This document shows, piece after piece, positions 11,679 through 61,078 of a DNA stretch of 64,000 nucleotides (the stretch's first letter is position 1; each line of letters begins with the position of its first letter). Under the pieces are notes generated by a model, which searched no databases, was not told the origin of the DNA, and saw nothing but the letters and a program-made list of their open reading frames with translations. The translations under genes and the position numbers were made by a program. Source of the stretch: Lamellibrachia columna (lineage: Eukaryota; Annelida; Polychaeta; Sabellida; Siboglinidae); NCBI GenBank assembly GCA_963662155.1, contig OY759269.1:14647142-14711141 (forward strand). Direction: 5' to 3'.

Positions 11679-11882
11679 AGTAGTAAGTGGAAGTTTTTGG
11701 GACCTCCTTATCTGTGCAAATTCAGTGGACCAGACATCAAAGGAACATCAAAGGCAAAACACCCTAATATCGCCCACCGCTTCTGAGTGCGCGCAGCCAA
11801 TCAGAGCGCCCCCTGGCGGTGGTAGCCGAGCGTGCGTGACGTAAGCGCCCCCTAGCGACGGGAGGAGGAACGAACATTGACC
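11679..11882 (+). repeat. Left terminal inverted repeat, 204 bp
   Basis: It matches the reverse complement of 29,235-29,448 apart from one substitution seen near the outer end and a 10-bp unit missing here (GCCGCAGAGC is present on the right). Inside are an NF-Y-type CCAAT box (AGCCAATCAG, 11,795-11,804), a CRE/ATF-type TGACGTAA (11,837-11,844) and two GCGCCCCCT cores (11,806 and 11,845) that resemble the CTCF core motif. These motif readings are by eye. Confidence 0.95.
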
Positions 11883-12713
11883 AGTAGTCATCGATAGTGG
11901 ACATAGGAACAAAGAAAATACACGTAATAACACCCACCCACGTAAACACGTGACCGTGACCTGGACCCTGACGGAGTGACCAGTCCGAGTGGCTAGCTAA
12001 TGCCAACTGGACGCCCGAACGACTGGAGTTAACTGTAAGCCGAAGCGTTTATCCAGCTGTGAGTCGTAGCGCGAGATCAAAGGACGCCAAACTGTACAAT
12101 GTAGCAAGGGAGCCGAGCTAATCAGTGATAAACAGCAACAATGTTGCAGTGACGACATTGATGTGGGACCGAGGTATGTCATAGCCGGTTATATGGAGTG
12201 AACATAAGACGTGATAAAAGTAAAACCGATAAAGATAAGGCGAATATGTAATAGTTATTAATTAGCCGACATGCATGGCTATAATATAACCGCTGGACGA
12301 CGGAAATCGAACCGTTCGTTAAATAAAATGTAGCAGGACGAAAATGGACTATGTGTAAAATGTAATATGTCAACACGCAGTTGGAACAAGAACGCAATAC
12401 AAGACGGGAATATAAGGTGATGCAAAATTTAATACACGAAAAAACACAAGTACAAATAGAAAAGTAAACGGTAGTAGTATTAGTTATAAGGAAAAAGAAG
12501 TTATAAAATGATCGTGGATAGAAGTGTTCATTCAGGAAGGCTATTGAATGCGGTCAACAGCGAACGCCGAACGCAACGGGCAGTCATTTTGCGTGCCAAG
12601 GCAATGCGGAGGGACACCGAACGACGGCGACGGAACAGTGACGGGAGATGGATGGGTCCTCTGTGAAGGCGACGGAAAATAGGTGTGGGTGATGGGACAT
12701 GTAGGAGTAGCAA
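11883..12713. other. Left internal region without a recognised gene
   Basis: About 830 bp separates the TIR from the end of the first gene. It contains no convincing coding frame; minus-strand frames over 12,528-12,813 are arginine-rich shadows. It may hold the 3' UTR of the minus-strand gene (an ATTAAA-type signal on the minus strand lies near 12,427). CATCGATAGTGGACA at 11,889-11,903 recurs at 17,548-17,562 upstream of PolB. Confidence 0.5.
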
Positions 12714-13425
12714 CTAGTGCATGACGGGTTCCCAATTCGTCATGTGACAGCGGAAAGCGACACGAGTGGCGTCGTCGCAGTCGTCGGCGGCGGCGTCTTC
12801 TTCGTCGGACCACGACTCAGGTGGAGCGGTCGAGGGGGCACGATATCCAGTGATGTAATGAGTGACGTCTGACATGACGTGTCGCCAACGGCTGACATGT
12901 TCTGCGAACGCTGGCAACAGATCGGCGTCGTAGAGGTGTTCTCGAAAGAGCACTGTCGCTTGACAGCTCCGTCGGTGTACGGCACCTTGTAGCATCTCCA
13001 GCATGACACGGGCCCAGTGAAAGCGAGGTATGCTGTAAGTAAAGGACACAACCAGAGTGAGAACATGCATAGGCATCTATATATATAACAGACGTAACCA
13101 AGCAACGAGAGATAGGTAATACGAAACCGATCGACTGGCAGACGTTATCGCTAGGCAAGCCGCTACATATGGAATTTGGAACGTGGACTCGACGAACACT
13201 CAGCGAGACATGTATACACAGGAACGATAGAACAGTATGTAAAGTGAAAACAGGTATGAGCTATGTAGAGCTATGTAGAGCTATGGAAGTATAATAGTAA
13301 TAAATAAATAAAGAAATAAATAAAAGAAATACTCACACACTACGCATTAGAGGCAGCAACGAATCTCCCATGATATTCATGAGAACCAAAAAGTCCGCAA
13401 AGTCACGTACTGCAACGACAGGCAT
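12714..13425 (-). CDS. Spliced Polinton gene of unknown function, two exons
   Basis: Exon 1 runs 13,425 to 13,337 (ATG at 13,425) and ends at a strong donor (GTGAGT). Exon 2 runs 13,032 to 12,714 after TTTACTTACAG. The phase is 2 on both sides and the joined frame is 135 codons. Exon 1 begins MPVVAVRDFADFLVLMN. Exon 2 has helical, tryptophan- and histidine-bearing segments, then an acidic patch (SWSDEEDAAADD). I do not recognise the family. It is transcribed away from the rest of the element, from a TATA box at 13,503-13,496. The exon structure is inferred from splice consensus and open frame only. Confidence 0.6.
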
Positions 13426-13471
13426 TATGAATTGAAGTGGTGAACGTTGTCGAAGGCAATGGCGGTTGTTA

Positions 13472-13503
13472 TGACGACACGACGAACGCAGCAGCTATAT
13501 ATA
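13472..13503 (-). promoter_or_regulatory. TATA box and initiator of the minus-strand gene
   Basis: On the minus strand TATATATA occupies 13,503-13,496 and an initiator-like TCATA has its A at 13,472, 31 nt downstream. The start codon follows at 13,425. The spacing is the textbook TATA-to-start distance and recurs at other genes of this element. Confidence 0.55.
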
Positions 13504-13504
13504 C

Positions 13505-13996
13505 CATGCTAGAAAATAAAACCAGACAGCTGGCGTAACCCGAGGAACAATACCACACTAATCAGAAAACAGATAAGCGGCCGGCAACTGTCAGCTTACC
13601 GACACCGGGCATCCATCACGCAAGGAAAAAGCGGGAGGTTATGTACTCGACAGTGCTAGAATGGCGTGTAGTTAAGACAGTAACTGTACATTTTAACGAT
13701 GCTAGAAATAAGCCAGACAGCTGACGTAACCCGAGGAACAATACCACACTTATATATATCTAGAACGGCGTGTAGTTAAGACAGTAACTGTACATTTTAA
13801 CGATGCTAGAAATAAGCCAGACAGGCTGACGTAACCCGAGGAACAATACCACACTAATTAGAAAACAGATAAGCGGCCGGCAACTGTCAGCTTACCGACA
13901 CCGGGCATCCATCACGCAGGGAAAAAGCGGGGGTTACGAGTACTCGACAGTGCTAGAACGGCGTGTAGTTAAGACAGTAACTGTACATTTTAACGT
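13505..13996. repeat. Three-unit tandem repeat between divergent genes
   Basis: Two full units (about 13,505-13,698 and 13,804-13,996) and one shortened unit (about 13,701-13,800) share GCTAGAAATAAGCCAGACAG, CGTAACCCGAGGAACAATAC and GTGTAGTTAAGACAGTAACT. The middle unit lacks the central part holding AAGCGGCCGGCAACTGTCAG. The block sits between the minus-strand gene and the NADAR gene, so it could be a shared regulatory region or replication-linked sequence. A TATATATAT at 13,751-13,759 in the short unit could drive the NADAR gene. Confidence 0.85.
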
Positions 13997-14008
13997 CATA
14001 AAGTCACC

Positions 14009-14493
14009 ATGAACCGACCTATACAGTTTAGAGGCGGTAAACATTATTTGTCCAATTTCTACGCGTGCAGGATACATGTGTGGAATAGAGAATTTACCAG
14101 TGTTGAAAGTGCTTACCAATGGCGGAAATGCATGCATCATGGTGACATGAAGACTGCAGAAAAAATGCTGTCCACGCGCACGGTCTACAGGCGAAACACC
14201 TCAGCAAGAGCATACGAGAAAAGGAACAGTTACGCGAAGAATGGAATACACAACGATATTCAATAATGTATGCGTTAGTTGCTGTTAAATATCGCGATCC
14301 AATCCTACGTAAACGACTGTTAGACACTGGATATTCCGAGTTGAAGGAATGGGTCAAGAGTCGGGAAGGATACTGGGGTGCACTGACATACTGTGGTCAA
14401 GCCGGTCAGAACATGCTAGGGCGTATACTCATGCGAGTACGCGAGTTCATTCGATTGCATCAGACTCCCGCCAGACGATCACAAGACCAGTGA
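14009..14493 (+). pseudogene. NADAR-domain (YbiA/DUF1768-like) gene, one frameshift
   Basis: The ATG at 14,009 has a good context (GTCACCATGA). The N-terminal frame shows FRGG, LSNFY and SVESAYQWRK, the usual start of a NADAR domain. The C-terminal frame (to the stop at 14,491) shows YWGAL and GQNMLGRILMRVRE, the usual end. The two halves are in different frames; the switch lies between about 14,180 and 14,191 and equals one missing base. NADAR proteins act on NAD-derived ADP-ribose compounds, and some remove ADP-ribose from guanine in DNA. A role against host ADP-ribosylation is an inference. One conserved spot reads VES where family members commonly have VEH. The break may be real or an assembly error. 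Confidence 0.85.
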
Positions 14494-14589
14494 ACAGAGT
14501 ACAGCGAGATACCAGACATCCAGCAGCGTACATCACGCGCGCGACCAAGGGTCGACGATAAGAAAGCGCACCATAGGCAGTGGGAGGTG

Positions 14590-14597
14590 TATATAAA
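14590..14597 (+). promoter_or_regulatory. TATA box of the multi-module early locus
   Basis: TATATAAA lies 95 nt before the first start codon at 14,685. The predicted start site near 14,620 is in a CA-rich stretch without a strong initiator. It is the only TATA found upstream of the six modules, so it probably serves all of them. Confidence 0.6.
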
Positions 14598-14684
14598 CCC
14601 AACGCAGAGTGAACGAGACACACACAATCGCACTCCGATCCACAGCACACTTCGAGACTACTACAAGCATCAGCAGAGAAAGAA

Positions 14685-15155
14685 ATGGCCGCCCAACAAG
14701 CCGATATGATGATGTCAGTCAGCCAACTCGAGAAGGAGGTATGTAACGGTACTTATATATTTAGACGGCCGTTAACCATAGTACAATGTGCTGTTCAAGA
14801 TAAATATATAGTATATCCATCTTGTCAGCAGTGTAACAAACGTGTGAGTCCTGAAAACAATGGCTTTGTGTGTCCTATCCATCGATGGCAGCGTGGTGTA
14901 GTGTATCAGTTCGCTATGCGTATCCTCCTACAAGACACCATCGGCAGTGAAGTGTGGGCAACGTTATTTAATGCCAAGGCTGTCCAGGTGTTGGGATACA
15001 CGGCTAACGATTACATGAACATGAAGACAGATGCCGAGCGGTATGCAGCACTGGACATGCTGCGGGGGGCCCAAGTCATGGTGACCATTAGGAAACGCGT
15101 GGCGGGACAGTATGTAAATTACACGGTGACAGACTTGGAAGTTGTCACAGTGTGA
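14685..15155 (+). CDS. RPA70-like single-stranded DNA-binding OB-fold protein
   Basis: This is a 156-residue protein. It carries a zinc-ribbon pattern (C47-x2-C50 ... C63-x2-H66) followed by YQFAMRILLQDTIGSEVWAT and a later ALFN/LGYTA-like segment. That order (zinc ribbon inside an OB fold, then L-x-D-x-T-G, then LF) is characteristic of the DNA-binding domain C of replication protein A 70 and relatives. It probably coats single-stranded DNA made during protein-primed replication. Its first 18 codons end at a strong splice donor (GAG then GTATGT at 14,739) in phase 0, so the same start exon may also be spliced to downstream modules; this reading frame is the unspliced product. Confidence 0.75.
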   Translation: MAAQQADMMMSVSQLEKEVCNGTYIFRRPLTIVQCAVQDKYIVYPSCQQCNKRVSPENNGFVCPIHRWQRGVVYQFAMRILLQDTIGSEVWATLFNAKAVQVLGYTANDYMNMKTDAERYAALDMLRGAQVMVTIRKRVAGQYVNYTVTDLEVVTV

Positions 15156-15171
15156 ATCAATCTGTTGACAG

Positions 15172-15741
15172 GCTGTCGCTACCGTCGCTACCGTCGCTGC
15201 TGCTGCAGCTACTGGAAGCAGTGACGTCACCGACAGGGAGGGAAGCTCTAAGGTAATGGAATGGTTACATAATAATAGCTGGGAAATACTATTCTCCTCC
15301 TCGGCGGACAGCTGTTCACCGCCACCACCATTAATTACAATAACAGATGACGAGGGGGAGGATAGTACGTCACAGGCCGACATCATATCCATAAGCAGTA
15401 GCGATGATATGGAGGCTACGGTGAGTGGTTTAGATAGGATACGGGATCGATCCAAAGCCATGACGAACGAAAATACCTTCTATAAGGCGCTAGAGGTCGC
15501 CAGCGTGCAATTTGCCTGTGACGAGGTGCATCGCATAATGAATTTAAAGGATGATACGGATCGTTACGTACCATCGACCAGCATGGTCATGCACGTCTTG
15601 CGGTGGCTATCGATAGATGTCATCGCAACGTGTGGGAACATGAAATGGCGTCACCAAGTGACAGACTTGGTTAGAAAGAGTATGTACGCCCAATACAACG
15701 ATATACAGGGCGACGCGGATGAAAATGCCGAATGTAACTAG
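15172..15741 (+). CDS. Early-locus module 2: serine/acidic protein with two SUMO-interaction-like motifs
   Basis: The frame is open from an acceptor-like AG at 15,170-15,171 to the stop at 15,739, in phase 0 with the start exon. An ATG at 15,256 would allow unspliced translation. An alanine-rich start is followed by LITITDDEGED and IISISSSDDME, each a hydrophobic core before acidic or serine residues, as in SUMO-interacting motifs. A donor-like GTGAGT at 15,421 (and a weaker GTAATG at 15,253) lies at a phase-0 boundary. The C-terminal half is helical with unknown function. I recognise no family. Confidence 0.5.
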   Translation, partial: AVATVATVAAAAATGSSDVTDREGSSKVMEWLHNNSWEILFSSSADSCSPPPPLITITDDEGEDSTSQADIISISSSDDMEATVSGLDRIRDRSKAMTNENTFYKALEVASVQFACDEVHRIMNLKDDTDRYVPSTSMVMHVLRWLSIDVIATCGNMKWRHQVTDLVRKSMYAQYNDIQGDADENAECN

Positions 15742-15758
15742 TTCTTTCTATTCAACAG

Positions 15759-16502
15759 AGCACTGGTCTACCGCAGCTGCAGAAGGCCTACAAACGCCAA
15801 GCCCCGGTCGATGACGATACGAGAGTGGTGGTGAAGCACCGTTGCACGGGGCAACGCGTCACACCGACAGCATCGCAGGACTACTACTGCAACTCGCCAC
15901 CAGCAAACCAGGAGGCGGAGCTACCGTGGGGAGCGGTGGAGTTGTCTGAGTCGGAGTCGGACCACGATGATGGGTGGATCATCAGAACCCCCCCTCATTA
16001 TTACGATGACGTCGACGAAGAAGCGATCGCTTCATCCCCCGCTCACGAGGACGACGACGACGACGAGGACTTCACGTACAGTCCTGCTTCACCACCACCA
16101 CTCACGCAAAGTACGGAGGCCGAGAAGACAACTACACTGTACGTATTCCCGATGAAAACCGTCGTCCTGAAGCCAGACGGGGAGTGCGAGTACATCGCCG
16201 ACCAACACACAATCACTCACCCGAAGCCGTCGACGTCGACCATCACTCACCCGAAGCCGTCGACGTCGACCATCGAGGACGACGCCACTGATGCTGAGGA
16301 AGATCCGAGAAAGGTGTGTTATTTAGAAATGCAAAACAACATTGCCGGTTTAATAGCGGAGGAGTGGAGGGCATCCGCCCCATCCACGGTGGAGGAAGTG
16401 ACCGTGGACGTGTGCCGATCACTAGCATTCACTATACTGTCGGCACCGTACCAGGAAATCATCATGAAATATGTGCGTTGCGCTATCCGTCGACAGCCGT
16501 GA
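15759..16502 (+). CDS. Early-locus module 3: acidic proline/serine-rich protein
   Basis: The frame is open from the acceptor TTCTTTCTATTCAACAG ending at 15,758 to the stop at 16,500, and lacks a good ATG near its start. It is therefore most easily read as a spliced exon. It contains acidic runs (EDDDDDED), a perfect 30-bp duplication encoding ITHPKPSTST twice (about 16,211-16,270), and a phase-0 donor-like GTGTGT at 16,314. The C-terminal tail after that donor is helical. Function unknown; acidic composition would suit a transcription regulator, which is inference. Confidence 0.5.
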   Translation, partial: STGLPQLQKAYKRQAPVDDDTRVVVKHRCTGQRVTPTASQDYYCNSPPANQEAELPWGAVELSESESDHDDGWIIRTPPHYYDDVDEEAIASSPAHEDDDDDEDFTYSPASPPPLTQSTEAEKTTTLYVFPMKTVVLKPDGECEYIADQHTITHPKPSTSTITHPKPSTSTIEDDATDAEEDPRKVCYLEMQNNIAGLIAEEWRASAPSTVEEVTVDVCRSLAFTILSAPYQEIIMKYVRCAIRRQP

Positions 16503-16581
16503 ACATTAGTATGTGATGAACAGTAGTCGGTAGTATGCAGTAGGCAGTATGTATGCACTTATAACCACGGTATATGAACAT

Positions 16582-16622
<41 letters not shown>
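16582..16622. repeat. (TAG)n microsatellite
   Basis: This is a run of TAG trinucleotides between modules 3 and 4, followed by a T/G-rich tract that leads into the acceptor of module 4. Confidence 0.95.
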
Positions 16623-16645
16623 TTTTTGTTGTTGTTGTTATGTAG

Positions 16646-16750
16646 ATGGAAGTGTACGACGAGGCACCCGTACTCCCAGGCAGCATTCGGAAGCGATCTG
16701 GAGTATTGAACGCCACGTATATGACGTCGTCAACAGAATATTATTATTAG
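16646..16750 (+). CDS. Early-locus module 4: candidate alternative last exon
   Basis: It follows GTTATGTAG at 16,645 and is open in phase 0 for 34 codons to TAG. It begins MEVYDEAPVLPGSIRKR. The acidic-APV start followed by basic residues is shared with modules 5 and 6. It begins with ATG, so independent translation is also possible. Evidence is limited to the open phase-0 frame, the acceptor and similarity to its neighbours. Confidence 0.35.
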   Translation: MEVYDEAPVLPGSIRKRSGVLNATYMTSSTEYYY

Positions 16751-16837
16751 TAAACATAACCGAGTTAGTAGGTAGTAGTAGTTGTTGTATTACGTAATAT
16801 GGAGTGGAATATTAGTATCTTTTAATTTGTTCTGTAG

Positions 16838-16939
16838 GATGACGTACCTGTGTCACCGGCTGAACTGCGTAGGCGTGCATGCCGGGAATTAGTGGTGATG
16901 ATACTAGAATACATTATATCAACACACGATGAACAGTAG
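16838..16939 (+). CDS. Early-locus module 5: candidate alternative last exon
   Basis: It follows TTGTTCTGTAG ending at 16,837, with a good pyrimidine/T-rich lead. The phase-0 frame is open for 33 codons and reads DDVPVSPAELRRRACRELVV, then a hydrophobic helix. It resembles module 6 in order (acidic start, P-V, RRR, hydrophobic helix, stop). It has no ATG at its start, so it only makes sense as a spliced exon. Confidence 0.4.
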   Translation, partial: DDVPVSPAELRRRACRELVVMILEYIISTHDEQ

Positions 16940-16958
16940 ACCTATTTCTTTTATGTAG

Positions 16959-17084
16959 GAGGAGAAGGAGGAGGAGGTGGAGGTGGAGGAAGCACCCGTG
17001 CTAGCAAGAGACGAGAGGAGACGCACAGTACATAATTTAATTCAGATAATTGTTGATTTTATGATTGAAACCCCCGCATTTTAA
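16959..17084 (+). CDS. Early-locus module 6: candidate alternative last exon
   Basis: It follows CTATTTCTTTTATGTAG ending at 16,958, the best acceptor of the group. The phase-0 frame is 41 codons: an acidic lead (EEKEEEVEVEEAPVL), then RDERRR, then a hydrophobic helix and TAA. It looks like a paralogue of module 5. The AATAAA at 17,469 is the next polyadenylation signal. Confidence 0.4.
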   Translation, partial: EEKEEEVEVEEAPVLARDERRRTVHNLIQIIVDFMIETPAF

Positions 17085-17167
17085 GAAGCACCGTTTGCAA
17101 CGGAATAACAGTAGTTAGTCGCTCTCTCTCGTTTAATGTATGCTTGTAGTTGTATGACATAGAGTAA

Positions 17168-17224
<57 letters not shown>

Positions 17225-17677
17225 ACAGACTTATATAGTATTCATCATCATTGTACGTAACCTCTGTCGTGGTGTAAAATCCCACAAGTTAATAACCATG
17301 GAACTAGCCACTGGCGTATCGATAACCGATCGTAAGCTAGAGGTCACTGTCGCGGATGTAACAATCCCACAAACCATAAAGTCTTCATAGTAATTATATA
17401 AGTCTAACCGTGTATATATGTATATGTATATGTATATTATGTATATGTCTATGTCAGTATATATACTCAATAAAACGTCATACAATGAATGAAACGTGTT
17501 GTCAGTGGTGTTGCCACGGTCTACATAGTGGAAAGAGAACCCGTAGCCATCGATAGTGGACACACAGTAGCCAATACCACAGGATCACACCTTAGGTCAT
17601 ACACCCTTCACAAATCACCATGCACCAACCACCACCACCACCTCCACCACCACCACCACCACCACTACCACACGTAC
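17085..17677. other. Intergenic spacer between early locus and PolB
   Basis: It holds a (TA)n run at 17,172-17,221, a polyadenylation signal at 17,469 and a CAC-rich tract at about 17,620-17,670. The His-rich open frame over the CAC tract looks like repeat read as codons. CATCGATAGTGGACA at 17,548 repeats a 15-mer next to the left TIR. Confidence 0.5.
17469..17474 (+). promoter_or_regulatory. Polyadenylation signal of the early locus
   Basis: AATAAA is followed within 30 nt by a GT-rich stretch (GTGTTGTCAGTGGTGTTG), the usual downstream element. It is the first such signal after the six modules. Confidence 0.6.
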
Positions 17678-17712
17678 TATATAGCTGTACTAAGGACCGC
17701 TGTCTCTCAGTT
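17678..17712 (+). promoter_or_regulatory. PolB core promoter: TATA box and initiator
   Basis: TATATAG at 17,678-17,684 and TCAGTT at 17,707-17,712 place the start A at 17,709, 31 nt from the first T. The PolB ATG follows 22 nt later. TCAGT is the classical metazoan initiator. Confidence 0.65.
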
Positions 17713-17730
17713 GTAGACACGTAGAGCATC

Positions 17731-20700
17731 ATGAAACGACACAAATGTCGTTACTGCGGACTGGTGCTCGACACGTATGCAGCGCTAAAACGCCACGTAG
17801 CGAGTCATGCGTTACCGACAGTGAACGAACACACGTATGCGGCGGCGCAACCAATAGAGGTGCCACCTAGCGACCAGGCAAAGCGAACGAAATATTCGTG
17901 TAAATGCGATGCAACGTTTGAGAGATGGGACGATCTGCAACAACATGTGAGATCCGTATGTCGTCTTAGCAGTAGCAGTAGCAGTAGCAGTAATAGAAAA
18001 CAGACCACAGTGTACACATGTGCGAAATGTGGACAGAAGTTCACTAGCCGCTATGCCCTGACCAGACACGCACGAAAAGCGTGTACCGACGACGGCGTCA
18101 CGAAACCACCATCGCCGAAGAGACCAATCAGGGAAGCCACCACACCCAACCATCCACTCGTTACCGACGCAGACCCCATCGACCCACCTGCTCGACTCCC
18201 CTTCGCCGACAACCTGTCGACGGAACTGTTAGATGTCGTACGAGCGCACTGGTCGACCATACGGACACGTGTATCGAGAGGTCCTCTCCAGTGCAGGTAC
18301 GATTACAGATTAACGACTCTGGACACGACCGTTCTAGAGACGCCGTTGAAGAACGTGTTCCAGGAACAGACCAACGCTTTCAAGATTAACCTCAGTTACG
18401 GGTTCATTCTGAGGAACAAGAACACGGGTCAATACAAGTACTACCATCCCTCGTGCAACTGCTGTGGACGCTACCTGGACGAGCCCAGTCTGATCACCAA
18501 CAGCAAGGAGTTTGATAAGTTCCTCGAACGCATCCGAGAAACCGACGTCTTGCAATGGGCCATCAATCAAAGACCGGATTCGGCGTGGGTGTGCGAACTC
18601 GTGACCAATGTCACATTTTTCGTCAATCGCATCATCGATCACCCGATAGGATGTGTAGGAATGACCGACCTTCCAGTCTACATCAAGAGGAACAAAGCCG
18701 TCATCGGATTGGAAAAGGAACCCATCCATGCCAAGAGGTACAGTGACAACTTGTGTCTCTTCCGATGTCTGGCGCTGCATCGAGGATGTGAAAGTCGTCG
18801 ATTGGAACCAGCTGTGAAGACGCTGTACGAGACGTACGCCCAAGACGGCGTATCCATGGAAGCATTTGCCGGGGTCACGATGGACGACCTCTATCGTGTA
18901 GAGACCACGTTCCAAACGAATGTGTGCGTGTACAGTCTCGTAAAACCAGATGGAGAGGATGGAAAGCCAACTGCAGAACTCGTTCGTCGCTCGGTATGTA
19001 AGTTTTCTGACACACTCTACCTCAATCTTCACGGGACGCATTTTTCCTTCATCCAGGATAGACGCAAGTACTGTCACTCGTACAGATGTCGGAAGTGTGG
19101 TGACTCGTTGTGGAAAGACGCATGGAGTCTACGCAACCACGAGAGCACGTGTACGGGAGGTGTGCGCCGAGTCTATCCTGGTGGCGTGTACCATTCGACT
19201 CCATCGGTGTTCGAACGCCTGGCCGACGAGAACATCCGAGTGGCCGAAGCGTTGCAGTACAATCCGTACCGAGCCACCTTCGACTTCGAGTGTTGGTTCG
19301 ACACCGAACACCTTCCGTCTGACAGTGCCCAGGTTCACTGTGTTGCGCGTCACGTCCCGCTGAGCGTCAGCGTGGCATCCAACGTACCCGGACACGAACA
19401 GGTGACATGCATCGTCACGGATGGAGACACCAACAAGTTAGTGAGCACCATGATGACTATCCTGCAAACGATGAGTGAGGCCGCGTACGACCAGATCAAA
19501 GACTCATACGATCATGTGTTGGAACAACTCGCAGAAGAGCTGACGAAATGGGACGCACGGGAGGAGGCTGCACGAAAAGCCACCGACAAGGACGCTCGAC
19601 CGGCAACCAATCCGTACAAAACGCTGATGGGACAACTGTATGGATGGATGCGTCAGTTACCTGTCATCGGGTTCAATTCGGGGAAGTATGATCTCAATGC
19701 CATCAAACAGTTTCTCATACCGTACTTCCTGGCGACGTCCAAGACCGTGGAACAAGAAGAAGAGCAAGAGGACGAGAGGGAGCAAGAGGGCAACAAGAAA
19801 GACGAGACCGACGGCGTCGGGTCAATGTTCGTCATCAAACGCAACAACACTTTCATGTGTCTTTCGACGGATCAACTGAAATTCCTCGACATGATCAACT
19901 ACATAGCCCCCGGATTCAGCTACGACAAGTATCTGAAAGCGTACGGATGCGAGGTGACAAAAGGTCATTTCCCGTACGAGTACATGGACCGACTGGAGCG
20001 ACTCGACGACACCGCTCTTCCACCGAAAGAGGCCTTCTTCAGTCGACTGAAGAACGAAGGTATATCAGACGAGGATTACGCCAGTTGTCAGGAGGCCTGG
20101 CGCGTCAATGGCATGACGACGTTGCGCGACTTTCTCGTCTGGTACAACAACAGGGACGTGGTTCCCTTTCTACAGGCCATCGACAGACAGTTCGCGTTCT
20201 ACCGACAACGGGGAATAGACATGTTCAAGCAAGGTATCAGCGTACCTGGTCTGACCCTGCTGTACCTGTTCAACGACCTTCCAGAGAAGACCTACTTTAC
20301 CATCTTCAACGAGAAGAATAAAGACCTGCACGACCTCGTCAAAGAGAACATTGTAGGCGGGCCTTCGATCATTTTTCATCGCTATCACGAGAAAGGGGTC
20401 ACCACGCTACGTCAGAACGAGTACGGAGAGGCGGCTCGTCCTTGCCGATCGATCGTCGGATACGATGCGAACGCACTGTACCTGTGGTCGCTCATGCAAG
20501 ACATGCCTATGGGATGGTACACGCGACGACGAGCAGAGAAGGACTTCCGCCCCGAATCAGCGCAGCTGTACGGACAGATGGCTGGAGAATGGTTGACGTG
20601 GGAATCCGAACGCACGGACGTCCCATACGGCATCAGATCAACGGACGAGAGAAGAGAATAGGCAAACATCGGGTGGACGGATGGTGTAGCGAGACGAAGA

Positions 20701-22118
20701 CGGCTTATCAGTTCGAAGGGTGCTATTTCCACGGTTGCTCGTGCAACCGTGACGAGGTGAACGCCGTCAACGGGAGACCAATGGCGGAACTGCTCGCCGA
20801 GACTCGAAAGACCACCGCCTATCTACGTCACTTTGTCACAGTCGTCGAGCTGTGGGAATGCGAGTGGAAAGAGATGAGACGAACCCCGGCCGTACGTAAG
20901 TGTCTGGATGCTGCATTTCCCCGACGTCGACACGTGCGCTGGACCATGACGTCGCAACAGATCCTGAACGGAGTGCGTGCAGGAACCGTGTTCGGCATGA
21001 TCGAGTGCGACATACGCGTACCGGAAGAATTGCGCGCGCACTTTGACGAGATGCAGCCCGTGTTCAAGAACATCAGTCTGATACGCGAGGATCTCGGTCC
21101 GTTCATGCGCCGATACGCCGAAGAACACGACATCATGAAGACTCCGCGACGCATGCTCGTGGGTAGTTATTGCGGCGATAAGATACTGCTCGCAACGCCA
21201 CTGCTGCGATGGTATCTGGACCACGGTCTCGAGGTACTGCACGTGTACCAGGTCATCGAATACGATCCTATTCCGTGTTTCCGGCGGTTCGGCGATGCAG
21301 TGTCCAAGGCCCGACGCGAGGGCGACGTTCACCGAGACAAGACCATCATCGCGGACACCATGAAGTTGCTGGGGAACTCGGGCTACGGAAAGACCATCAC
21401 CAACGTTGACCGACATCGTGACGTCAGCTACTGCACGGAGAAGGCGGCATCGCTCCTGGTCAACGATAAACGGTTCCGACAACTCGATATCGTCGTCGAC
21501 GATGCGTACGAAATAGAGTTGAACAAGAAAACCGTCAAGTACACCCTACCCGTACACGTGGGATTCTTCGTTCTGCAGTACTGCGAGATGGATACAGATT
21601 CCGCCTATTTGGCCTTGGCCGGCGAGTCCGTCGACGACCTCGTGACCCCGGAACTACGAGAACATTATTTCCGACATCGTTCCGAATGGCTCCCATCGGA
21701 ATGTTGCGACGATCATCGGAACGACTACGTGCGCTGTCGTCTCGCCAATCGACCGTGGGTCGGAGACGAGGCGTGATGTAAGGCGCGAAGAGCGTTCGAC
21801 AAGAGGACACCGGGTCTGTTCAAGGTCGAGTGGTCCGGTGCCGGGTTCGTGGGGTTGTGTAGCAAGACGTACTATTGTTTCGGAGCCACCGACAAGTACA
21901 GCACCAAAGGACTGAGCAAACGGCACAACACCATCGACAAGGACGCGTTCCTGGCGGTGCTCACCAACCGTCGGAGCGGAGGTGGATCGAACCGTGGTTT
22001 CCGGGTGCATAAATCTATCGTGATGACGTACGTGCAGGTACGGGATGCACTCACCTACTTTTACGCCAAACGCGTGGTGCACGAGGACGGGGTGACCACG
22101 GGTCCGGTGGACGTATAG
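17731..22118 (+). pseudogene. Protein-primed family B DNA polymerase (two breaks)
   Basis: The first 976 codons carry three N-terminal C2H2/C2HC zinc fingers (residues 6-26, 57-77, 97-118), an OTU-like pair (DNLCLFR near 340, GTHFSFI near 436) and a further CRKC finger near 455. Exonuclease motifs follow (FDFE near 517, NSGKYDLN near 648, YNNRD near 805), then polymerase motif A-like YDANALY near 912. The remainder reads in another frame and has FEGCYFHGC, GNSGYGKT (near 21,375) and DTDSAY (near 21,594). The frame change is equivalent to one missing base between about 20,616 and 20,628. A further in-frame TGA interrupts at 21,774-21,776. All catalytic motifs remain visible, so the damage is recent or is an assembly artefact. 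Confidence 0.93.
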
Positions 22119-22148
22119 AAAAGGTGATGCACGCTGCACTCGTTTCAT
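22114..22148 (+). promoter_or_regulatory. ATPase core promoter overlapping the PolB stop codon
   Basis: TATAGAAAA starts at 22,114 and contains the PolB stop TAG. An initiator-like TTTCATAC has its A at 22,147, 33 nt downstream. Transcripts from here would lack the ATG at 22,127 and begin translation at 22,157. Confidence 0.5.
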
Positions 22149-22156
22149 ACGCAATC

Positions 22157-22783
22157 ATGGATGCACGATGGAAACACCCCTTCACGTGCATCGTCGCCGG
22201 ACCGACGGGGTGCGGCAAGAGTACTTTCGTGACGCGTATGTTGCGTCACGCCGCTGCGATGATAGATCCACCGCCCGAACAAATAACGTGGTGTTACGGC
22301 GAATGGCAAGAGGCTTACGCAACGATGGACTTGGGTCACGTGCGATTCGAGGAAGGTTTACCGACGGCGGCCATGTTCGACCCGACAACGAGGAACCTCA
22401 TCGTCATAGACGATCTCATGGCAGAAACGGACGAACGGGTCACGACCTTGTTCACTAAAAAAAGTCACCACAGGAACACGTCCGTGCTGTATCTCGTACA
22501 GAACCTATTCCCTAAAAACAAAGAGAGTCGCACCATCAGTCTGAATTCGCAGTACATGGTGGTGTTCAAGAATCCACGTGACGCATCGCAGATGGCGACC
22601 TTGGCTCGGCAGATGTATCCGGGACGCTGCAAGTTCGTGCAAGAGGCGTTTACAGACGCCACGGCGGTACCGTACGGTTATCTATTGGTCGATCTCAAAC
22701 AGGACACGCCCGAGGACATGCGTCTGCGCACGGCCATCTTTCCAGACGACGGTGTTCAGTACGTGTACCTGCCGAAGGTATAA
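22157..22783 (+). CDS. Packaging ATPase (FtsK/HerA-A32 type)
   Basis: The 208-residue protein has a Walker A motif GPTGCGKST at residues 15-23 and a Walker B LIVIDDLM with D85-D86. These are the hallmarks of the genome-packaging ATPases of Polintons and related viruses. I chose the ATG at 22,157 (MDARWKHPFTCIVAGPTG) because homologues normally start just before the HPFT segment and because the predicted start site lies at 22,147. An upstream in-frame ATG at 22,127 would add ten residues. The gene ends in a TAA that is part of the TATA box for the next gene. Confidence 0.93.
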   Translation: MDARWKHPFTCIVAGPTGCGKSTFVTRMLRHAAAMIDPPPEQITWCYGEWQEAYATMDLGHVRFEEGLPTAAMFDPTTRNLIVIDDLMAETDERVTTLFTKKSHHRNTSVLYLVQNLFPKNKESRTISLNSQYMVVFKNPRDASQMATLARQMYPGRCKFVQEAFTDATAVPYGYLLVDLKQDTPEDMRLRTAIFPDDGVQYVYLPKV

Positions 22784-22813
22784 AACGACCGAGTGTGTGG
22801 ATAGTCTCTTCAT
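22779..22813 (+). promoter_or_regulatory. Core promoter overlapping the ATPase stop codon
   Basis: TATAAAA at 22,779-22,785 includes the ATPase TAA. TTCATTC follows with its A at 22,812, 33 nt downstream, and the next ATG is at 22,821. The leader would be under ten nucleotides. Confidence 0.55.
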
Positions 22814-22820
22814 TCGCATC

Positions 22821-23189
22821 ATGTCTGCCCTGGTGAAGAGACACATCGTGTGCATACAGGCTCTGGCCAGAGTCAAGAACAACAAAATTAAAAAGGCCAT
22901 CATCGCCAACGCCGACGCCGATCTGCTGTGTGCACTAGCCGAGTGTGCCTACAACATACTATCAAAGAACATTCCATTGACCGCTTTACAGAGGCGACGA
23001 TTGAATAAATACAGGACGAAGTTACGCGAGTTGGCTAATAGACGAACGCTCGCTGCCAGAAGACGACGCATCTTGCTGCAACCGCAGGTTGGCGAGGGAC
23101 AGAGCGGCGGTTTCCTATCGGCCTTCCTAGCACCGTTGGCAAGTTCGGTCTTGATACCCTTGCTCCAACAGGTGCTGACCAAAAGGTAG
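22821..23189 (+). CDS. Conserved Polinton small basic protein
   Basis: This 122-residue protein has the segment ADADLLCALAECAYNIL followed by IPLT, a run of arginines (ARRRRI) and a hydrophobic C-terminus (GGFLSAFLAPLASSVLIPLL). I recognise the A-D-L-L-x-A-L-x-E-C-A-x-N-I-L signature as common in animal Polintons, but no function is established to my knowledge. The basic middle and amphipathic tail would suit a DNA-binding or membrane-active virion component; that is inference. It lies between the ATPase and the next conserved protein, with a 4-bp gap. Confidence 0.7.
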   Translation: MSALVKRHIVCIQALARVKNNKIKKAIIANADADLLCALAECAYNILSKNIPLTALQRRRLNKYRTKLRELANRRTLAARRRRILLQPQVGEGQSGGFLSAFLAPLASSVLIPLLQQVLTKR

Positions 23190-23193
23190 ATAC

Positions 23194-23973
23194 ATGGAAC
23201 ACGCACGCAAGATGGCCTTGGTAGACCCGCGCCTGTTGGACACGCTTCGGTCACCCCCACCCCCACCCGCGACCGACACCTTAGGCAAGAAGGTGCAAGC
23301 CCTCGATGACGAGATGAAGACCATCCTAGATAGAAAGGACCTAGACGACGGGACCAAGGTGACACTGTATAATCAGGTGTTGCAGCGGTACAACGTCTTG
23401 ACCGATAAACGCATCAAGGAACCGCTACGCGTGGTCACGGTGAACGAGTCGGAGGTGGCGTCGGAGTCGGGGTCGGAGGGTGCAGGTCGCGCTCCTATTA
23501 GCGGACTGGAGGCCACCGTCTTGGCCACCGTTCCCAGGACCATGCAGGCCAAAGCCAGTCGTTTGATGGAGTATCTCAAGAGAGACATCGCGTGGACCGC
23601 TCGCGGTGAACTGATACACGAGGGCGTGCCGGTTGTCGGAAGTAACGTGGTGGATCTCGTTAATGATATGTTGCGTAAGAGTAAGACCGCTCCGACGGGT
23701 TGGCAGCCATTCGCACGACAACTCCGTGCCATCAACCTACCCATGACGTTGGTCGGTAACGTCGCCAGAAGAGCCTACATACGTCCGGAGCCGACGGTCA
23801 CTCCCTCTCGTCGGTCCAGTACTCCTCCGCGTGCTGCATCAGGTAGTGCACGAAGATCGCTCAGTTGGACACCCCTCGCCCGTCAGAGCCGTCGAATGGA
23901 ACATACCATGCCCACCCCACCCCCCGAAAGACGCAAGGCTTTGACGTCATTGGCTGGTTGGGACAACCTATAG
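23194..23973 (+). CDS. Conserved Polinton protein of unknown function (259 aa)
   Basis: It starts MEHARKMALVDPRLLDTL, followed by a proline run, a coiled stretch (LDDEMKTILDRKDLDD, YNQVLQRY) and GVPVVGSNVVDLVNDMLRK. I recognise the YNQVLQRY and GSNxVDLVND segments as recurrent in Polinton proteins without assigned function. No own TATA box was found in the preceding gene, so it may be read from the transcript of the 22,821 gene. Its stop TAG is inside a TATAGG that could start the next unit. Confidence 0.7.
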   Translation: MEHARKMALVDPRLLDTLRSPPPPPATDTLGKKVQALDDEMKTILDRKDLDDGTKVTLYNQVLQRYNVLTDKRIKEPLRVVTVNESEVASESGSEGAGRAPISGLEATVLATVPRTMQAKASRLMEYLKRDIAWTARGELIHEGVPVVGSNVVDLVNDMLRKSKTAPTGWQPFARQLRAINLPMTLVGNVARRAYIRPEPTVTPSRRSSTPPRAASGSARRSLSWTPLARQSRRMEHTMPTPPPERRKALTSLAGWDNL

Positions 23974-24370
23974 GATGGTGCGGTGCGTGTCCGTAGCACA
24001 GTGTTCGACATGTCGCCCGATCCACAGGACCTCGTTTACCGTTCCATCGTCGGTGCGATATTTATCAGTGGACTTTACATGATTGCTCACGGTATAGTCC
24101 TACGTTTTATGCAACAGACGTTATTCGAACCCCCCACGCTCGTCGAATGGAACATTCCTTGTCCACCCACCCACCCTCCCCCCCGCATCACGCAAGGCTT
24201 CGTCGTCATTGGCTGGATGGAACAACGTATAAGGTGGTACGACGCGTATCCGTAGCACAGTCATGCTCATCGATCCACAGGACGCGTACCGGTCCATCGT
24301 CGCTGCGCTATTGTTCGAAGGATTTACCGTGCTGGGAGACGTTGCAGCCGACATTCTTATACGCCAGGTG
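23893..24370 (+). repeat. Tandem duplication, period about 250 bp, carrying a promoter and small gene
   Basis: CGTCGAATGGAACATWCC, CCCACCC, CGCAAGGCTT, GTCATTGGCTGG, GTCCGTAGCACAGT/TATCCGTAGCACAGT, ATCCACAGGAC and TCCATCGTCG occur in the same order from 23,893 and from 24,143. Each unit contains a TATA-like box (TATAGG at 23,969; TATAAGG at 24,228), CACAGT 31 nt downstream and a short membrane-type reading frame. The first unit includes the last codons of the preceding gene. Confidence 0.85.
24010..24255 (+). CDS. Small membrane protein, duplicated cassette copy 1
   Basis: The 81-codon frame starts MSPDPQDLVYRSIVGAIFIS. It has one hydrophobic stretch (SIVGAIFISGLYMIAHGIVL). Its C-terminal half reads into the second repeat unit. 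The start is 10 nt after the predicted initiator at 24,000. Similarity to copy 2 (DPQD-Y-RSIV-A) supports that both were once the same gene. Confidence 0.45.
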   Translation: MSPDPQDLVYRSIVGAIFISGLYMIAHGIVLRFMQQTLFEPPTLVEWNIPCPPTHPPPRITQGFVVIGWMEQRIRWYDAYP

Positions 24371-24397
24371 TTATTCCGACTATGGTTACTCCGCTAG
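24263..24397 (+). CDS. Small membrane-type protein, duplicated cassette copy 2
   Basis: The 44-codon frame starts MLIDPQDAYRSIVAALLF, parallel to copy 1, and ends at TAG 24,395. The hydrophobic segment is shorter and interrupted by acidic residues (FEG, GDVAAD). It overlaps the next small frame. Too short to judge on its own; the parallel with copy 1 is the evidence. Confidence 0.35.
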   Translation: MLIDPQDAYRSIVAALLFEGFTVLGDVAADILIRQVLFRLWLLR

Positions 24398-24543
24398 ACC
24401 GTTGTTGTTCCACCGCTGTCATTGTGGGTGCCATAGTGTGTGTCCTACTTCACGTCGGCGTGCTCCTCGTCATTCGTCAGCAGTCGGACTCCGGAGTCAA
24501 CGTCACCGCCCCCGTCAACACATCGGTCCTCCACCTCTTTTGA
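24382..24543 (+). CDS. Small single-pass membrane protein upstream of integrase
   Basis: The 53-residue frame has one clear membrane segment (STAVIVGAIVCVLLHVGVLL) and then a polar tail with NVT, a possible glycosylation site. Its stop overlaps the integrase start in TGATG, a compact arrangement compatible with termination-reinitiation. Too short for the usual gene-length cut-offs. Family not recognised. Confidence 0.5.
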   Translation: MVTPLDRCCSTAVIVGAIVCVLLHVGVLLVIRQQSDSGVNVTAPVNTSVLHLF

Positions 24544-25610
24544 TGGCACAGAGGGGAGAACGCTCCTTGAGTGAGGTCTACTTCGATCCCACGAAGGTAG
24601 GTAGTTATGGCGGCGTCGCTGGCTTGCGACGCGTCACGCGCCTGCCACGGAAGGCCGTCACGGCATGGTTGTCGGAACAGGACGCCTACACCTTACACAA
24701 ACCAGCGAGACGTCATTTCAAGAGACGACGCGTCATCGTGGGTGGTATGCTTCAGCAGTGGCAGGCCGATCTCGTAGACATGACGAAGGTCAAAGACGTC
24801 AACGACGCTATGGCCTTTCTCCTCACGATGATCGACGTCTTCTCGAAAGTGGCCTGGTGTGTTCCCATGAAGAACAAGTCCGCGGCGTCGTTGGTAAAAG
24901 CGCTGCAATCCACGTTCGTCGACGTTTGCCCCCAGACCTTGCAGACGGATCAAGGCACAGAATTCCGGAACAAATCCGTTCAGGCGCTATTGAAGCGTTA
25001 CGACATCCATTACTTCTACACGCACAACATGGAGACGAAGGCAGCCGTCGTGGAACGGTTCAACCGAACGTTGAAGACGCGCATGTGGCGCTACTTCACG
25101 AAACACCAGACGTGGCGGTACGTCGACATCCTTCCGGACTTGATGCGATCGTATAACAATGCCCCCCACCGCATGATCGGTATGGCTCCGTCACAGGTGA
25201 ATGCACAGAACCAAGAACAGGTGTGGCAACGTCTGTACGGTCACGATGGTAAGGGCGTGCCCAAGTTGCGCGTGTCAGATCGCGTGCGTGTCAGCAAGTA
25301 CAAACGCACGTTCGAAAAGGGCTACGAGACGAACTGGAGCGAAGAGTTGTTCACGATACACGAGGTTCACCCCTCCGACCCACCCGTGTATCGCTTGCGG
25401 GACGATCTCGGCGAAGTGCTGGAGGGTACCTTCTACGAACTGGAGCTGCAGAAGGTGACGGTACCCTTCGATAAAGTGTACCGTGTTGAAGCGGTACTGA
25501 AACGCCGTACAGTTGGTAGACGAAAGGAAGCTTTGGTGAAATGGTTCGGCTATTCCTCCTACTTCAACAGCTGGATCGATGCCAAGGGACTCGTCAACTA
25601 TAAAGCCTAG
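24543..25610 (+). CDS. Polinton integrase (RVE fold) with chromodomain
   Basis: The 355-residue protein carries the retroviral-type catalytic triad: D76 (WQADLVDM), D136 (QTDQGTEF) and E171 (VVERFNRT). A C-terminal chromodomain lies at about residues 310-353 (YRVEAVLKRR ... ALVKWFGYSS ... SWIDAKGL), which in related integrases guides insertion to modified histones. I chose the ATG at 24,543; the open frame continues upstream to 24,147 only through the tandem-duplicated cassette. All catalytic residues are present and the frame is intact. Confidence 0.95.
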   Translation: MAQRGERSLSEVYFDPTKVGSYGGVAGLRRVTRLPRKAVTAWLSEQDAYTLHKPARRHFKRRRVIVGGMLQQWQADLVDMTKVKDVNDAMAFLLTMIDVFSKVAWCVPMKNKSAASLVKALQSTFVDVCPQTLQTDQGTEFRNKSVQALLKRYDIHYFYTHNMETKAAVVERFNRTLKTRMWRYFTKHQTWRYVDILPDLMRSYNNAPHRMIGMAPSQVNAQNQEQVWQRLYGHDGKGVPKLRVSDRVRVSKYKRTFEKGYETNWSEELFTIHEVHPSDPPVYRLRDDLGEVLEGTFYELELQKVTVPFDKVYRVEAVLKRRTVGRRKEALVKWFGYSSYFNSWIDAKGLVNYKA

Positions 25611-25632
25611 CCGCGCACATGACGACACTGCA
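25599..25632 (+). promoter_or_regulatory. Core promoter inside the integrase 3' end
   Basis: TATAAAG at 25,599-25,605 encodes the last integrase residues. CATTCG follows with its A at 25,632, 33 nt downstream. The next ATG is at 25,641. Confidence 0.5.
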
Positions 25633-25640
25633 TTCGAGAA

Positions 25641-25964
25641 ATGACACACGACGCGACACCACCACCACCGACCTGCACCACCACCATAGACGAGGAGGAG
25701 GAGAAGGAGGTGGACGAACACGAGGATTGTACTGACGCTGCAACGAACGAGCCAGACAGCACTCCCTGGCATCTGTTCGGTACCGCGTGTCCCAAAGAGG
25801 AGATCGTGTTTCTGTGTCAGGTCGTCGTCTTGTACACGGTCATTCTGATAAGCATTTACAACCTGACGACAGGTCACGGCGATTCTAATATGTGGACGGC
25901 TCTGTTGAGTAGTTCTTTGGGTTACCTACTGCCCAATCCCACGTTGAGACGCAATGGCGACTGA
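25641..25964 (+). CDS. Conserved Polinton single-pass membrane protein
   Basis: The 107-residue frame has a threonine/proline and acidic N-terminus, then FGTACPKEEIVFLCQVVV, a membrane segment (IVFLCQVVVLYTVILISI), and DSNMWTALLSSSLGYLLPNP. The C-P-K-E-E-I-V-F and WTALLSSxLGYLLPxP segments recur beside capsid genes in Polintons; function is unassigned. It overlaps the next gene by 11 nt. Confidence 0.7.
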   Translation: MTHDATPPPPTCTTTIDEEEEKEVDEHEDCTDAATNEPDSTPWHLFGTACPKEEIVFLCQVVVLYTVILISIYNLTTGHGDSNMWTALLSSSLGYLLPNPTLRRNGD

Positions 25965-28481: not shown

Positions 28482-28482
28482 G

Positions 28483-28962: not shown

Positions 28963-28965
28963 GCC

Positions 28966-29080
28966 TCTGGCGCGGTGGTCGCTCCACCCGTAAGCTCGCC
29001 CTCGAACCTCTGGCGCGGTGGAGACACCCGTAAGTTCGCGACCTCTGGCGCGATGGTCACCATTCGCAAGTCGCCTCGCC
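28966..29080. repeat. Short tandem repeat after the protease gene
   Basis: Three imperfect units begin CCTCTGGCGCGGTGG (28,966, 29,010) and CCTCTGGCGCGATGG (29,041), each followed by ACCCGTAAG- or ATTCGCAAG-type sequence. It lies in the 3' UTR of the last gene. Confidence 0.7.
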
Positions 29081-29160
29081 TTCATCTTCGTCATACCCGG
29101 CTCGTTGTATCCAATCACATACGATCGCCTCGTTTGTACTGCTGCCGCTTTGTTGTATTC

Positions 29161-61076: not shown

Positions 61077-61078
61077 AA

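What the first reader, a model, noticed from the sequence alone, without database searches (positions are those of the whole stretch)
14590..17474. One promoter, one start exon and six in-frame modules: a nested alternatively spliced early locus in a Polinton
The start exon (14,685-14,738) ends at GAG then GTATGT in phase 0. Downstream, acceptor-like AGs at 15,171, 15,758, 16,645, 16,837 and 16,958 each open a phase-0 frame that ends in its own stop. Donor-like GTGAGT (15,421) and GTGTGT (16,314) are also phase 0. Modules 5 and 6 have no ATG at their start and share an order (acidic lead, P-V, arginine triplet, hydrophobic helix, stop), so they look like duplicated alternative last exons. Read through, module 1 is a full RPA-like protein. 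This resembles the compressed, splice-diversified early regions of adenoviruses, which I do not know to be described for Polintons. Caution: I chose sites partly because the frames agreed.
Basis: partly seen in the sequence, partly recalled or inferred. Interest (0 to 1): 0.88.

Follow-up and report, generated by a model that had tools for sequence, protein, structure and literature searches.

The report
Alternatively spliced early locus of Polinton
A virus-like element scattered through a deep-sea tubeworm genome appears to use one switch and one starting segment to make a whole set of proteins by alternative splicing, a compression known from adenoviruses but not known to us for this kind of element; the case rests on DNA comparison, because no RNA was seen.

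Summary
The window lies in the tubeworm Lamellibrachia columna, inside a 17,770-bp Polinton/adintovirus-type provirus (11,679-29,448) with a perfect 6-bp target duplication. In 14,300-17,500 the three named donors rank 1-3 of 244 GTs and four of the five named acceptors rank 1-4 of 237 AGs in a frame-blind score; all are phase 0. I compared 80 further copies from the same genome, down to about 65% identity in module 1 and 34% in the end of module 3. Splice sites persist: D1 in 41 of 41 close copies, GTAAGT in 37 of 40 distant ones. The frames evolve as protein both where a donor must be ignored (module 1 pN/pS 0.26, 2b 0.59, 3b 0.37) and where splicing must enter (module 3 before its first ATG 0.47; tails 5 and 6 0.46 and 0.58). 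Both retained and spliced forms are therefore needed. Modules 4-6 are duplicated last exons, gained and lost among copies; module 4 shows no coding-type constraint. Transcripts and 'early' timing remain untested. Module 1 is an RPA70 DBD-C-like protein; module 2 carries SUMO-interaction-like motifs. Intact vertebrate Mavericks are reported intron-free.

The parts
14590..14597 (+). TATA box (TATATAAA), the only TATAWAW match between 14,300 and the start exon
   Evidence: further matches: 14,754 inside module 1, and 17,172 onward; identical in 41 of 41 close copies; TATAAA or TATATA within 150 bp upstream in 28 of 40 distant copies
14685..14738 (+). Start exon, 18 codons, ATG; supplies the N-terminus to all products
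   Evidence: pN/pS 0.43 (bootstrap 0.19-1.15), 3 of 3 distinct indels multiples of 3
14739..14744 (+). Donor D1 (GTATGT)
   Evidence: GT in 41 of 41; only +4 varies (T 22, A 5, G 14); GTAAGT in 37 of 40 distant copies
14739..15155 (+). Module 1: read-through of D1, RPA70 DBD-C-like zinc-ribbon OB protein (156 aa with start exon)
   Evidence: PF08646 1.6e-12; RPA70/RFA1 chains 7e-6 to 8e-4; pN/pS 0.26 (0.17-0.40)
15170..15171 (+). Acceptor A1
   Evidence: AG in 40 of 41; TTGACAG in 36 of 40 distant copies
15172..15420 (+). Module 2a exon, with two SUMO-interaction-like motifs (LITITDDE, IISISSSDD)
   Evidence: pN/pS 0.58 upstream of its first ATG, 0.48 after; motif in 96 of 112 homologues versus 14.2 expected in shuffles
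15421..15426 (+). Donor D2 (GTGAGT)
   Evidence: 39 of 41, other two deleted; GTGAGT/GTAAGT in 36 of 40 distant copies
15421..15741 (+). Module 2b: read-through C-terminal domain, stop at 15,739-15,741
   Evidence: pN/pS 0.59; module 2 has 112 homologous proteins
15757..15758 (+). Acceptor A2
   Evidence: AG in 39 of 41; motif located in 29 of 40 distant copies
15759..16313 (+). Module 3a exon: acidic; in the window no in-frame ATG for 131 codons
   Evidence: pN/pS 0.47 (0.38-0.58) over 15,759-16,151; ATG positions; motifs
16314..16319 (+). Donor D3 (GTGTGT)
   Evidence: 39 of 41; phase 0 and best upstream donor in 32 of 38 distant copies with the module 3b motif at 34-89% identity
16314..16502 (+). 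Module 3b: read-through C-terminal domain and stop
   Evidence: pN/pS 0.37
16644..16645 (+). Acceptor A3
   Evidence: AG in 36 of 41
16646..16750 (+). Module 4, candidate last exon (34 aa)
   Evidence: open in phase 0 at 30-36 codons in 35 of 36 copies examined; tail paralogy; but pN/pS 1.0
16836..16837 (+). Acceptor A4 (best acceptor of the region)
   Evidence: AG in 37 of 41
16838..16939 (+). Module 5, last exon (33 aa)
   Evidence: pN/pS 0.46 (0.27-0.77), 54 copies
16957..16958 (+). Acceptor A5
   Evidence: AG in 38 of 41
16959..17084 (+). Module 6, last exon (41 aa)
   Evidence: pN/pS 0.58 (0.40-0.84), 53 copies; 11 of 16 distinct indels multiples of 3
17469..17474 (+). AATAAA, the only one in 14,300-17,700
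   Evidence: a string containing AATAAA in 25 of 41 copies, nothing aligned in 12, variant in 4

Best explanation
This is one transcription unit of an endogenous Polinton/adintovirus-type element. A TATA promoter and a single 18-codon start exon feed three 5' splice sites (D1-D3) and five 3' splice sites (A1-A5), all in phase 0, ending at one poly(A) signal. When D1 is not used, ribosomes read through into module 1, an RPA70 DBD-C-like ssDNA-binding protein. When D1 is used, the start exon is joined to module 2, module 3 or a short tail exon. D2 and D3 repeat the choice: read on to a C-terminal domain (2b, 3b) or splice it away for an interchangeable duplicated tail (4, 5, 6). With free choice this allows up to 16 proteins. 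Shown: anatomy, site strength, phase, conservation in 81 copies, protein-type evolution of both retained and spliced frames. Inferred: actual splicing, relative use of isoforms, 'early' timing, and function (replication plus SUMO-pathway or transcriptional control, the viral early-region pattern).
For: Frame-blind ranks of donors 1-3 of 244 and acceptors 1-4 of 237, phase 0; one AATAAA, and no TATAWAW match between 14,755 and 17,171 that could serve modules 2-6 separately, the nearest being 418 bp before module 2. Sites kept in 41 close copies (D1 41, D2 39, D3 39, A1 40, A2 39, A3 36, A4 37, A5 38; all eight in 28). At D1 the amino acid changes (Cys/Ser/Gly) only at intron +4, while +1 to +3, +5 and +6 are fixed. 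In distant copies D1 is GTAAGT in 37 of 40, D2 canonical in 36 of 40, D3 phase-0 GTGTGT in 32 of 38 although the protein beside it is down to 34% identical. Protein-type evolution both in retained 'introns' (M1 0.26, M2b 0.59, M3b 0.37) and in frames without a usable ATG (M3 0.47, M5 0.46, M6 0.58, M2 before its ATG 0.58). Distinct indels are multiples of 3 in M2 26 of 32, M3 245 of 320, M6 11 of 16 and the start exon 3 of 3, against 8 of 39, 13 of 53 and 3 of 22 in UTR stretches. A gene model of another species (P0164, Lamellibrachia satsuma) enters module 3 with the residues that follow A2 in copy L083.
Against: No RNA was seen. The 12-mers before the acceptors are only slightly more conserved than other non-coding 12-mers (982 of 20,000 draws as low). 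Donor hexamers are nearly invariant, but 23 of 153, 19 of 186 and 5 of 244 other in-frame hexamers of the same modules are as conserved (D1 taken without +4). Non-coding stretches are also somewhat below 1 (spacers 0.71 and 0.86, 3' UTR 0.73), and one shifted frame of module 5 gives 0.68 against its true 0.57. Indels: module 1 0 of 2, module 4 3 of 7 and module 5 3 of 6 are multiples of 3, while the spacers have 37 of 79 and 7 of 10. A1 is a weak acceptor. Module 4 has no coding-type signal (pN/pS 1.0). Tails are missing or different in some copies (for example L019, L028, L035, L036, L039, L040). All 80 chosen copies have no stop inside module 1, and copies are related by descent, so counts are neither unbiased nor independent.
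Confidence: 0.9

Rival explanations
1. Separate small genes with their own promoters and starts, no splicing; the site matches are chance.
For: Module 2 has an ATG (15,256) at which most of its 112 listed homologues begin; a second TATAWAW match lies at 14,754 inside module 1; acceptors of this strength are not enriched over the window.
Against: In the window module 3 has no ATG for 131 codons, yet that stretch evolves as protein (0.47); among 40 copies its first in-frame ATG lies at 25 different codon distances from the acceptor in 36 (indels contribute) and is absent in 4. The region upstream of module 2's ATG evolves as protein (pN/pS 0.58, bootstrap 0.32-0.99), and a divergent lineage appears to lack that ATG (P0160-P0163). 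Modules 5 and 6 have no ATG at their start. No other TATAWAW match before 17,172.
Confidence: 0.05
2. One ordinary constitutively spliced gene (start exon, 2a, 3a, one tail); modules 1, 2b and 3b are just intron sequence.
For: All junctions are phase 0 and donors and acceptors are well conserved.
Against: Modules 1, 2b and 3b, which such introns would remove, have pN/pS 0.26, 0.59 and 0.37 with shifted-frame controls of 0.98-1.88, and module 1 is a recognisable RPA domain.
Confidence: 0.04
3. Module 4 (and its acceptor) is a conserved DNA or RNA control element rather than a last exon.
For: Module 4 is conserved about equally at all codon positions (differences 0.096, 0.074, 0.086; pN/pS 1.0, 57 copies) and holds a TGACGTCGTCA stretch, ATF/CRE-like by recall.
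Against: It is open in phase 0 at near-constant length behind a kept acceptor, and its first half matches tails 5 and 6 as protein, with codon-position agreement 10/9/2 of 14 against module 5 and 8/11/5 of 14 against module 6.
Confidence: 0.35

Closest known systems
Adenovirus early regions (E1A, E4) (recalled)
   Same: One promoter, shared 5' exon, nested alternative splicing, several related regulatory proteins from a few kilobases; the host element carries an Adeno_IVa2-like ATPase and a gene weakly like the adenovirus protease (E 0.05, below cut-off).
   Different: The unspliced product is an RPA-like domain; junctions all phase 0 with duplicated tail exons; no LxCxE in 0 of 232 module 2 and 3 homologues. 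Timing unknown.
Polyomavirus T-antigen region (recalled)
   Same: Shared N-terminal exon; the retained intron encodes a Cys-rich protein (small t) and splicing enters a larger one.
   Different: No J-domain or helicase found by Pfam; here the choice is repeated three times with interchangeable tails.
Polintons/Mavericks and adintoviruses (PMC8097293, PMC11071296: passages read)
   Same: TIRs with AGTAGT...ACTACT ends and 6-bp TSD, rve integrase with chromodomain.
   Different: Intact vertebrate Mavericks are reported to have intronless ORFs; I found no report of a spliceosomal alternatively spliced region. Self-splicing group I introns are reported in some protist polinton-like viruses (passages of PMC12220804), a different kind of intron.

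Membership tests
[quoted passage not shown]
   Arms 11,679-11,882 / 29,235-29,448, 99-100% complementary; TATGTG on both sides
Polinton / adintovirus-type element | Retrovirus-like integrase with C-terminal chromodomain | tested here: met
   24,147-25,607: PF00665 7.5e-12, PF00385 1e-6
Polinton / adintovirus-type element | FtsK/A32-type packaging ATPase | tested here: met
   22,124-22,780: PF02456 Adeno_IVa2 2.8e-5, 23.6 bits versus cut-off 21
Polinton / adintovirus-type element | Protein-primed DNA polymerase B | tested here: inconclusive
   Frames of 17,731-22,118 searched apart; PF03175 only 0.24, below cut-off; OTU-like part recognised by eye only
Polinton / adintovirus-type element | Double jelly-roll major capsid protein and penton | tested here: inconclusive
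   27,618-28,478 and 25,954-26,781 gave no Pfam family and no solved structure for the former; no fold could be run
RPA70 DBD-C family (module 1) | OB fold with zinc ribbon, sequence match above the family cut-off | tested here: met
   PF08646 47.8 bits versus cut-off 28.5; RPA70 chains; CxxC...CxxH invariant in the 11 sequences of A1. Fold itself not modelled
Alternatively spliced viral early region | Spliced and unspliced mRNAs from one promoter | not testable with these tools
   No RNA data on hand; comparative evidence only
Alternatively spliced viral early region | Expression before genome replication | not testable with these tools
   No expression data
LxCxE-type oncoproteins (E1A, E7, T antigen) | LxCxE motif | tested here: not met
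   0 of 112 module 2 and 0 of 120 module 3 homologues (the 120 listed of 151 found)

The most novel reading that the evidence does not exclude
A combinatorial early locus: eight phase-0 junctions make start exon, regulatory bodies and duplicated C-terminal tails freely interchangeable, up to 16 proteins from 2.8 kb, with tail exons gained, lost and fused between copies of a Polinton family with more than 150 copies in one genome. Splicing-compressed early regions would then have arisen in, or been inherited by, the Polinton side of the adenovirus relatives.
Probability: 0.55. Interest if true: 0.82.

Novelty: new variant of a known kind. Interest (0 to 1): 0.72.

Why it matters
Intact vertebrate Mavericks are described as intron-free, in agreement with the first descriptions (PMC8097293, passages read). 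A conserved, multi-choice spliced unit in an annelid Polinton shows what looks like adenovirus/polyomavirus-style early-region economy in a group often placed near the root of eukaryotic DNA viruses. It bears on whether that strategy is old or convergent, warns that ORF-only annotation will miss Polinton genes (modules 3, 5 and 6 have no usable ATG), and can be tested at once with public RNA-seq of the same specimen (PRJEB68010).

Tried and rejected
Viral contigs: integrase, module 1, module 3 and ATPase queries gave no confirmed relative in 4 scans; prokaryote contigs none for module 1; phage records none for module 1 or the 17,731 ORF. AlphaFold of module 2: mean pLDDT 46, not used. Pfam on modules 2 and 3: nothing that I found credible (window's own module 2: one hit below its cut-off; scattered hits among members). 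A frameshifted helix in module 4: not supported (671 and 1,315 of 2,000 shuffles). Similarity of tails to modules 2b and 3b: not significant. Amphipathic tail helix: not beyond shuffles. LxCxE oncoprotein idea: rejected. Branch-point search: uninformative. I did not pursue spliced retrocopies, because a junction probe would mean joining exon ends.

Dropped rows: M4 1 of 58, M5 7 of 61 and M6 5 of 58 tails before the codon test. One search mislocated D2 in 8 of 40 copies; one search replaced it (3 not located, of which L062 and L085 show GTGAGT). Choice of copies: 40 of the 150 scored places and 40 of the 150, spread by identity; all 80 are listed there with no stop inside module 1.
Full report
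WHERE IT IS. The window is G000:C9:14647142-14711141 of an 879,693,805-bp genome held in 30 contigs. Total and chromosome lengths agree with the published Lamellibrachia columna assembly wsLamColu1.1 (879.73 Mb in 42 scaffolds, 15 chromosomes; passages of PMC13080331). The finding lies in a 17,770-bp element at 11,679-29,448 with inverted repeats, AGTAGT...ACTACT ends and a TATGTG duplication on both sides. It carries an rve integrase with chromodomain and an Adeno_IVa2-like ATPase, and a gene weakly like the adenovirus protease (E 0.05). Its polymerase-like gene is broken into several frames, so this copy is defective; DNA polymerase B is only weakly matched (PF03175 0.24) and no capsid protein was confirmed. 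I call it Polinton/adintovirus-type on the ends, duplication, integrase and ATPase.

THE OBSERVATION. All named sites exist. In a frame-blind score (my recalled consensus), donors 15,421, 16,314 and 14,739 rank 1-3 of 244 GTs of 14,300-17,500, and acceptors 16,838, 15,759, 16,959 and 16,646 rank 1-4 of 237 AGs; 15,172 ranks 12th. All are phase 0. A TATA box stands before the start exon and the only AATAAA at the end; further TATAWAW matches are one inside module 1 (14,754) and those of the AT-rich 3' part from 17,172.

THE TAILS. Modules 4-6, translated separately, are paralogous: M5-M6 and M4-M5 0 of 2,000 shuffles reach the score, M4-M6 3 of 2,000. Four off-frame controls for M5-M6 show nothing; for M4-M6 two of four off-frame pairs are also high (0 and 13 of 500), which I put down to shared low-complexity DNA. 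M5 and M6 agree at codon positions 1/2/3 in 17/20/8 of 29 codons, as expected of old duplicates kept as protein.

COMPARISON WITHIN THE GENOME. A module 1 search scored 150 of 1,119 candidate places and a distant query 150 of 1,108. I took 40 early regions from the first list, spread over 86-100% identity, and 40 from the second; all are places without a stop inside module 1. In the window plus 40 close copies, GT/AG is kept at D1 41, D2 39, D3 39, A1 40, A2 39, A3 36, A4 37, A5 38 of 41, and all eight in 28 of 41. At D1 the codon after the donor GTA changes between TGT, GGT and AGT: only intron +4 moves, although that changes the amino acid of module 1. In the 40 distant copies D1 is GTAAGT in 37, D2 is canonical in 36 with one lost and three not located, and D3 is the best donor upstream of the module 3b motif, in phase 0, in 32 of the 38 copies with that motif, though the motif is only 34-89% identical. 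TTGACAG at A1 is seen in 36 of 40 and the A2 motif in 29 of 40. At least one tail behind an acceptor passes my filter in 32 of 40.

HOW THE FRAMES EVOLVE. pN/pS in phase 0 is 0.43 for the start exon, 0.26 for module 1, 0.58 for module 2 before its ATG, 0.48 and 0.59 for 2a and 2b, 0.50 and 0.37 for 3a and 3b, 0.57 for M5, 0.58 for the core of M6 and 1.24 for M4 in the 41 close copies. Leaving M4 aside, shifted frames range from 0.68 (M5) and 0.82 (2a) to 2.99, most near or above 1; spacers give 0.71 and 0.86 and the 3' UTR 0.73. Module 3 before the window's first ATG gives 0.47 (0.38-0.58) over 131 codons. Tails over close and distant copies: M5 0.46 (0.27-0.77), M6 0.58 (0.40-0.84), M4 1.0 (0.49-1.99). 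Distinct indels are multiples of 3 in 3 of 3 (start exon), 0 of 2 (M1), 26 of 32 (M2), 245 of 320 (M3), 3 of 7 (M4), 3 of 6 (M5) and 11 of 16 (M6), against 8 of 39, 13 of 53 and 3 of 22 in the UTR stretches and 37 of 79 and 7 of 10 in two spacers. So the signal is strong for modules 1-3, moderate for tails 5 and 6, absent for tail 4.

WHY ALTERNATIVE. Module 1 lies between D1 and A1 and evolves as protein, so D1 must be left unused in some mRNAs. Module 3, tail 5 and tail 6 lack a usable ATG and evolve as protein, so splicing must enter them in other mRNAs; the start exon is the only exon upstream that brings an ATG and a donor and is not itself dependent on splicing, so D1 is the natural partner. 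The same reasoning applies to 2b at D2 and 3b at D3. A constitutive gene or a row of separate genes cannot do both. With free choice the graph allows 16 products (arithmetic). A gene model of Lamellibrachia satsuma (P0164) enters module 3 with the residues that follow A2 in copy L083; what evidence that model rests on is unknown.

TAIL TURNOVER. Of seven copies looked at for this, L028 and L035 keep only module 4; L036 and L040 (and, by the same peptide, L039) have one tail that combines module 4- and 5-like parts; L026 has an additional tail acceptor.

FUNCTION. Module 1 matches Replication factor-A C (PF08646) and RPA70/RFA1 chains. Module 2 has a SUMO-interaction-like motif in 96 of 112 homologues versus 14.2 expected; module 3 a variant in 54 of 120 versus 16.9, PPxY in 96 of 120 and basic NLS-like strings in 72 of 120 (no shuffle control for these two); no LxCxE in either. 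These are motif matches, not tests. My best guess is a replication and host-control early region.

LITERATURE. Intact vertebrate Mavericks have intronless ORFs, in agreement with Kapitonov and Jurka (passages of PMC8097293; the older paper not seen). Passages of PMC11071296 on adintoviruses mention no splicing of their genes. The Drosophila adintovirus paper's only 'splic' passage concerns host cDNA contamination. Passages of PMC12220804 report self-splicing group I introns in some protist polinton-like viruses, a different kind of splicing. The listings showed no title or abstract start on a spliceosomal spliced or RPA-bearing Polinton region, on nematode Mavericks, listed nothing on point. 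The library lacks most subscription papers, and the first adintovirus description did not appear in the listings.

Noticed in passing
14009-14490: A NADAR-like (YbiA family) gene just upstream of the unit; in the window its two halves lie in different frames (PF08719 0.0014 and 1.8e-6, both below cut-off). Of 8 loci (L001 is the window) 2 (L002, L006) have both halves in one open frame; in 4 the motifs were not located.
   Followed up: partly
17731-22118: Polymerase-like gene with C2H2 fingers and, by eye, an OTU-like part is interrupted in this copy, so the provirus is defective; PolB domain only weakly matched.
   Followed up: partly
whole genome (G000): The module 1 search has over 1,100 first-look candidate places, of which 150 were scored, all matching and most without internal stops: a very large Polinton family in one tubeworm genome.
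   Followed up: partly
13519-14017: Direct repeats of 44-107 nt between a minus-strand ORF and the NADAR-like gene, possibly control repeats.
   Followed up: no
12714-13076 (-): Minus-strand ORF of 120 aa; P0166, a hit of the module 2 search, begins with a similar protein.
   Followed up: no
L079 (G000:C4:16146100-16146567): A module 1 copy reported inside an open frame of 1,876 codons; part of the fetched stretch reads N.
   Followed up: no
15222-15229: A perfect TGACGTCA (ATF/CRE-like by recall) inside module 2, and a related stretch in module 4.
   Followed up: no
30663-33447: Long inverted repeat, about 2.8 kb in all, next to the Polinton, probably a separate non-autonomous element.
   Followed up: no
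59867-63832: LINE-like ORFs with endonuclease and reverse transcriptase domains.
   Followed up: no
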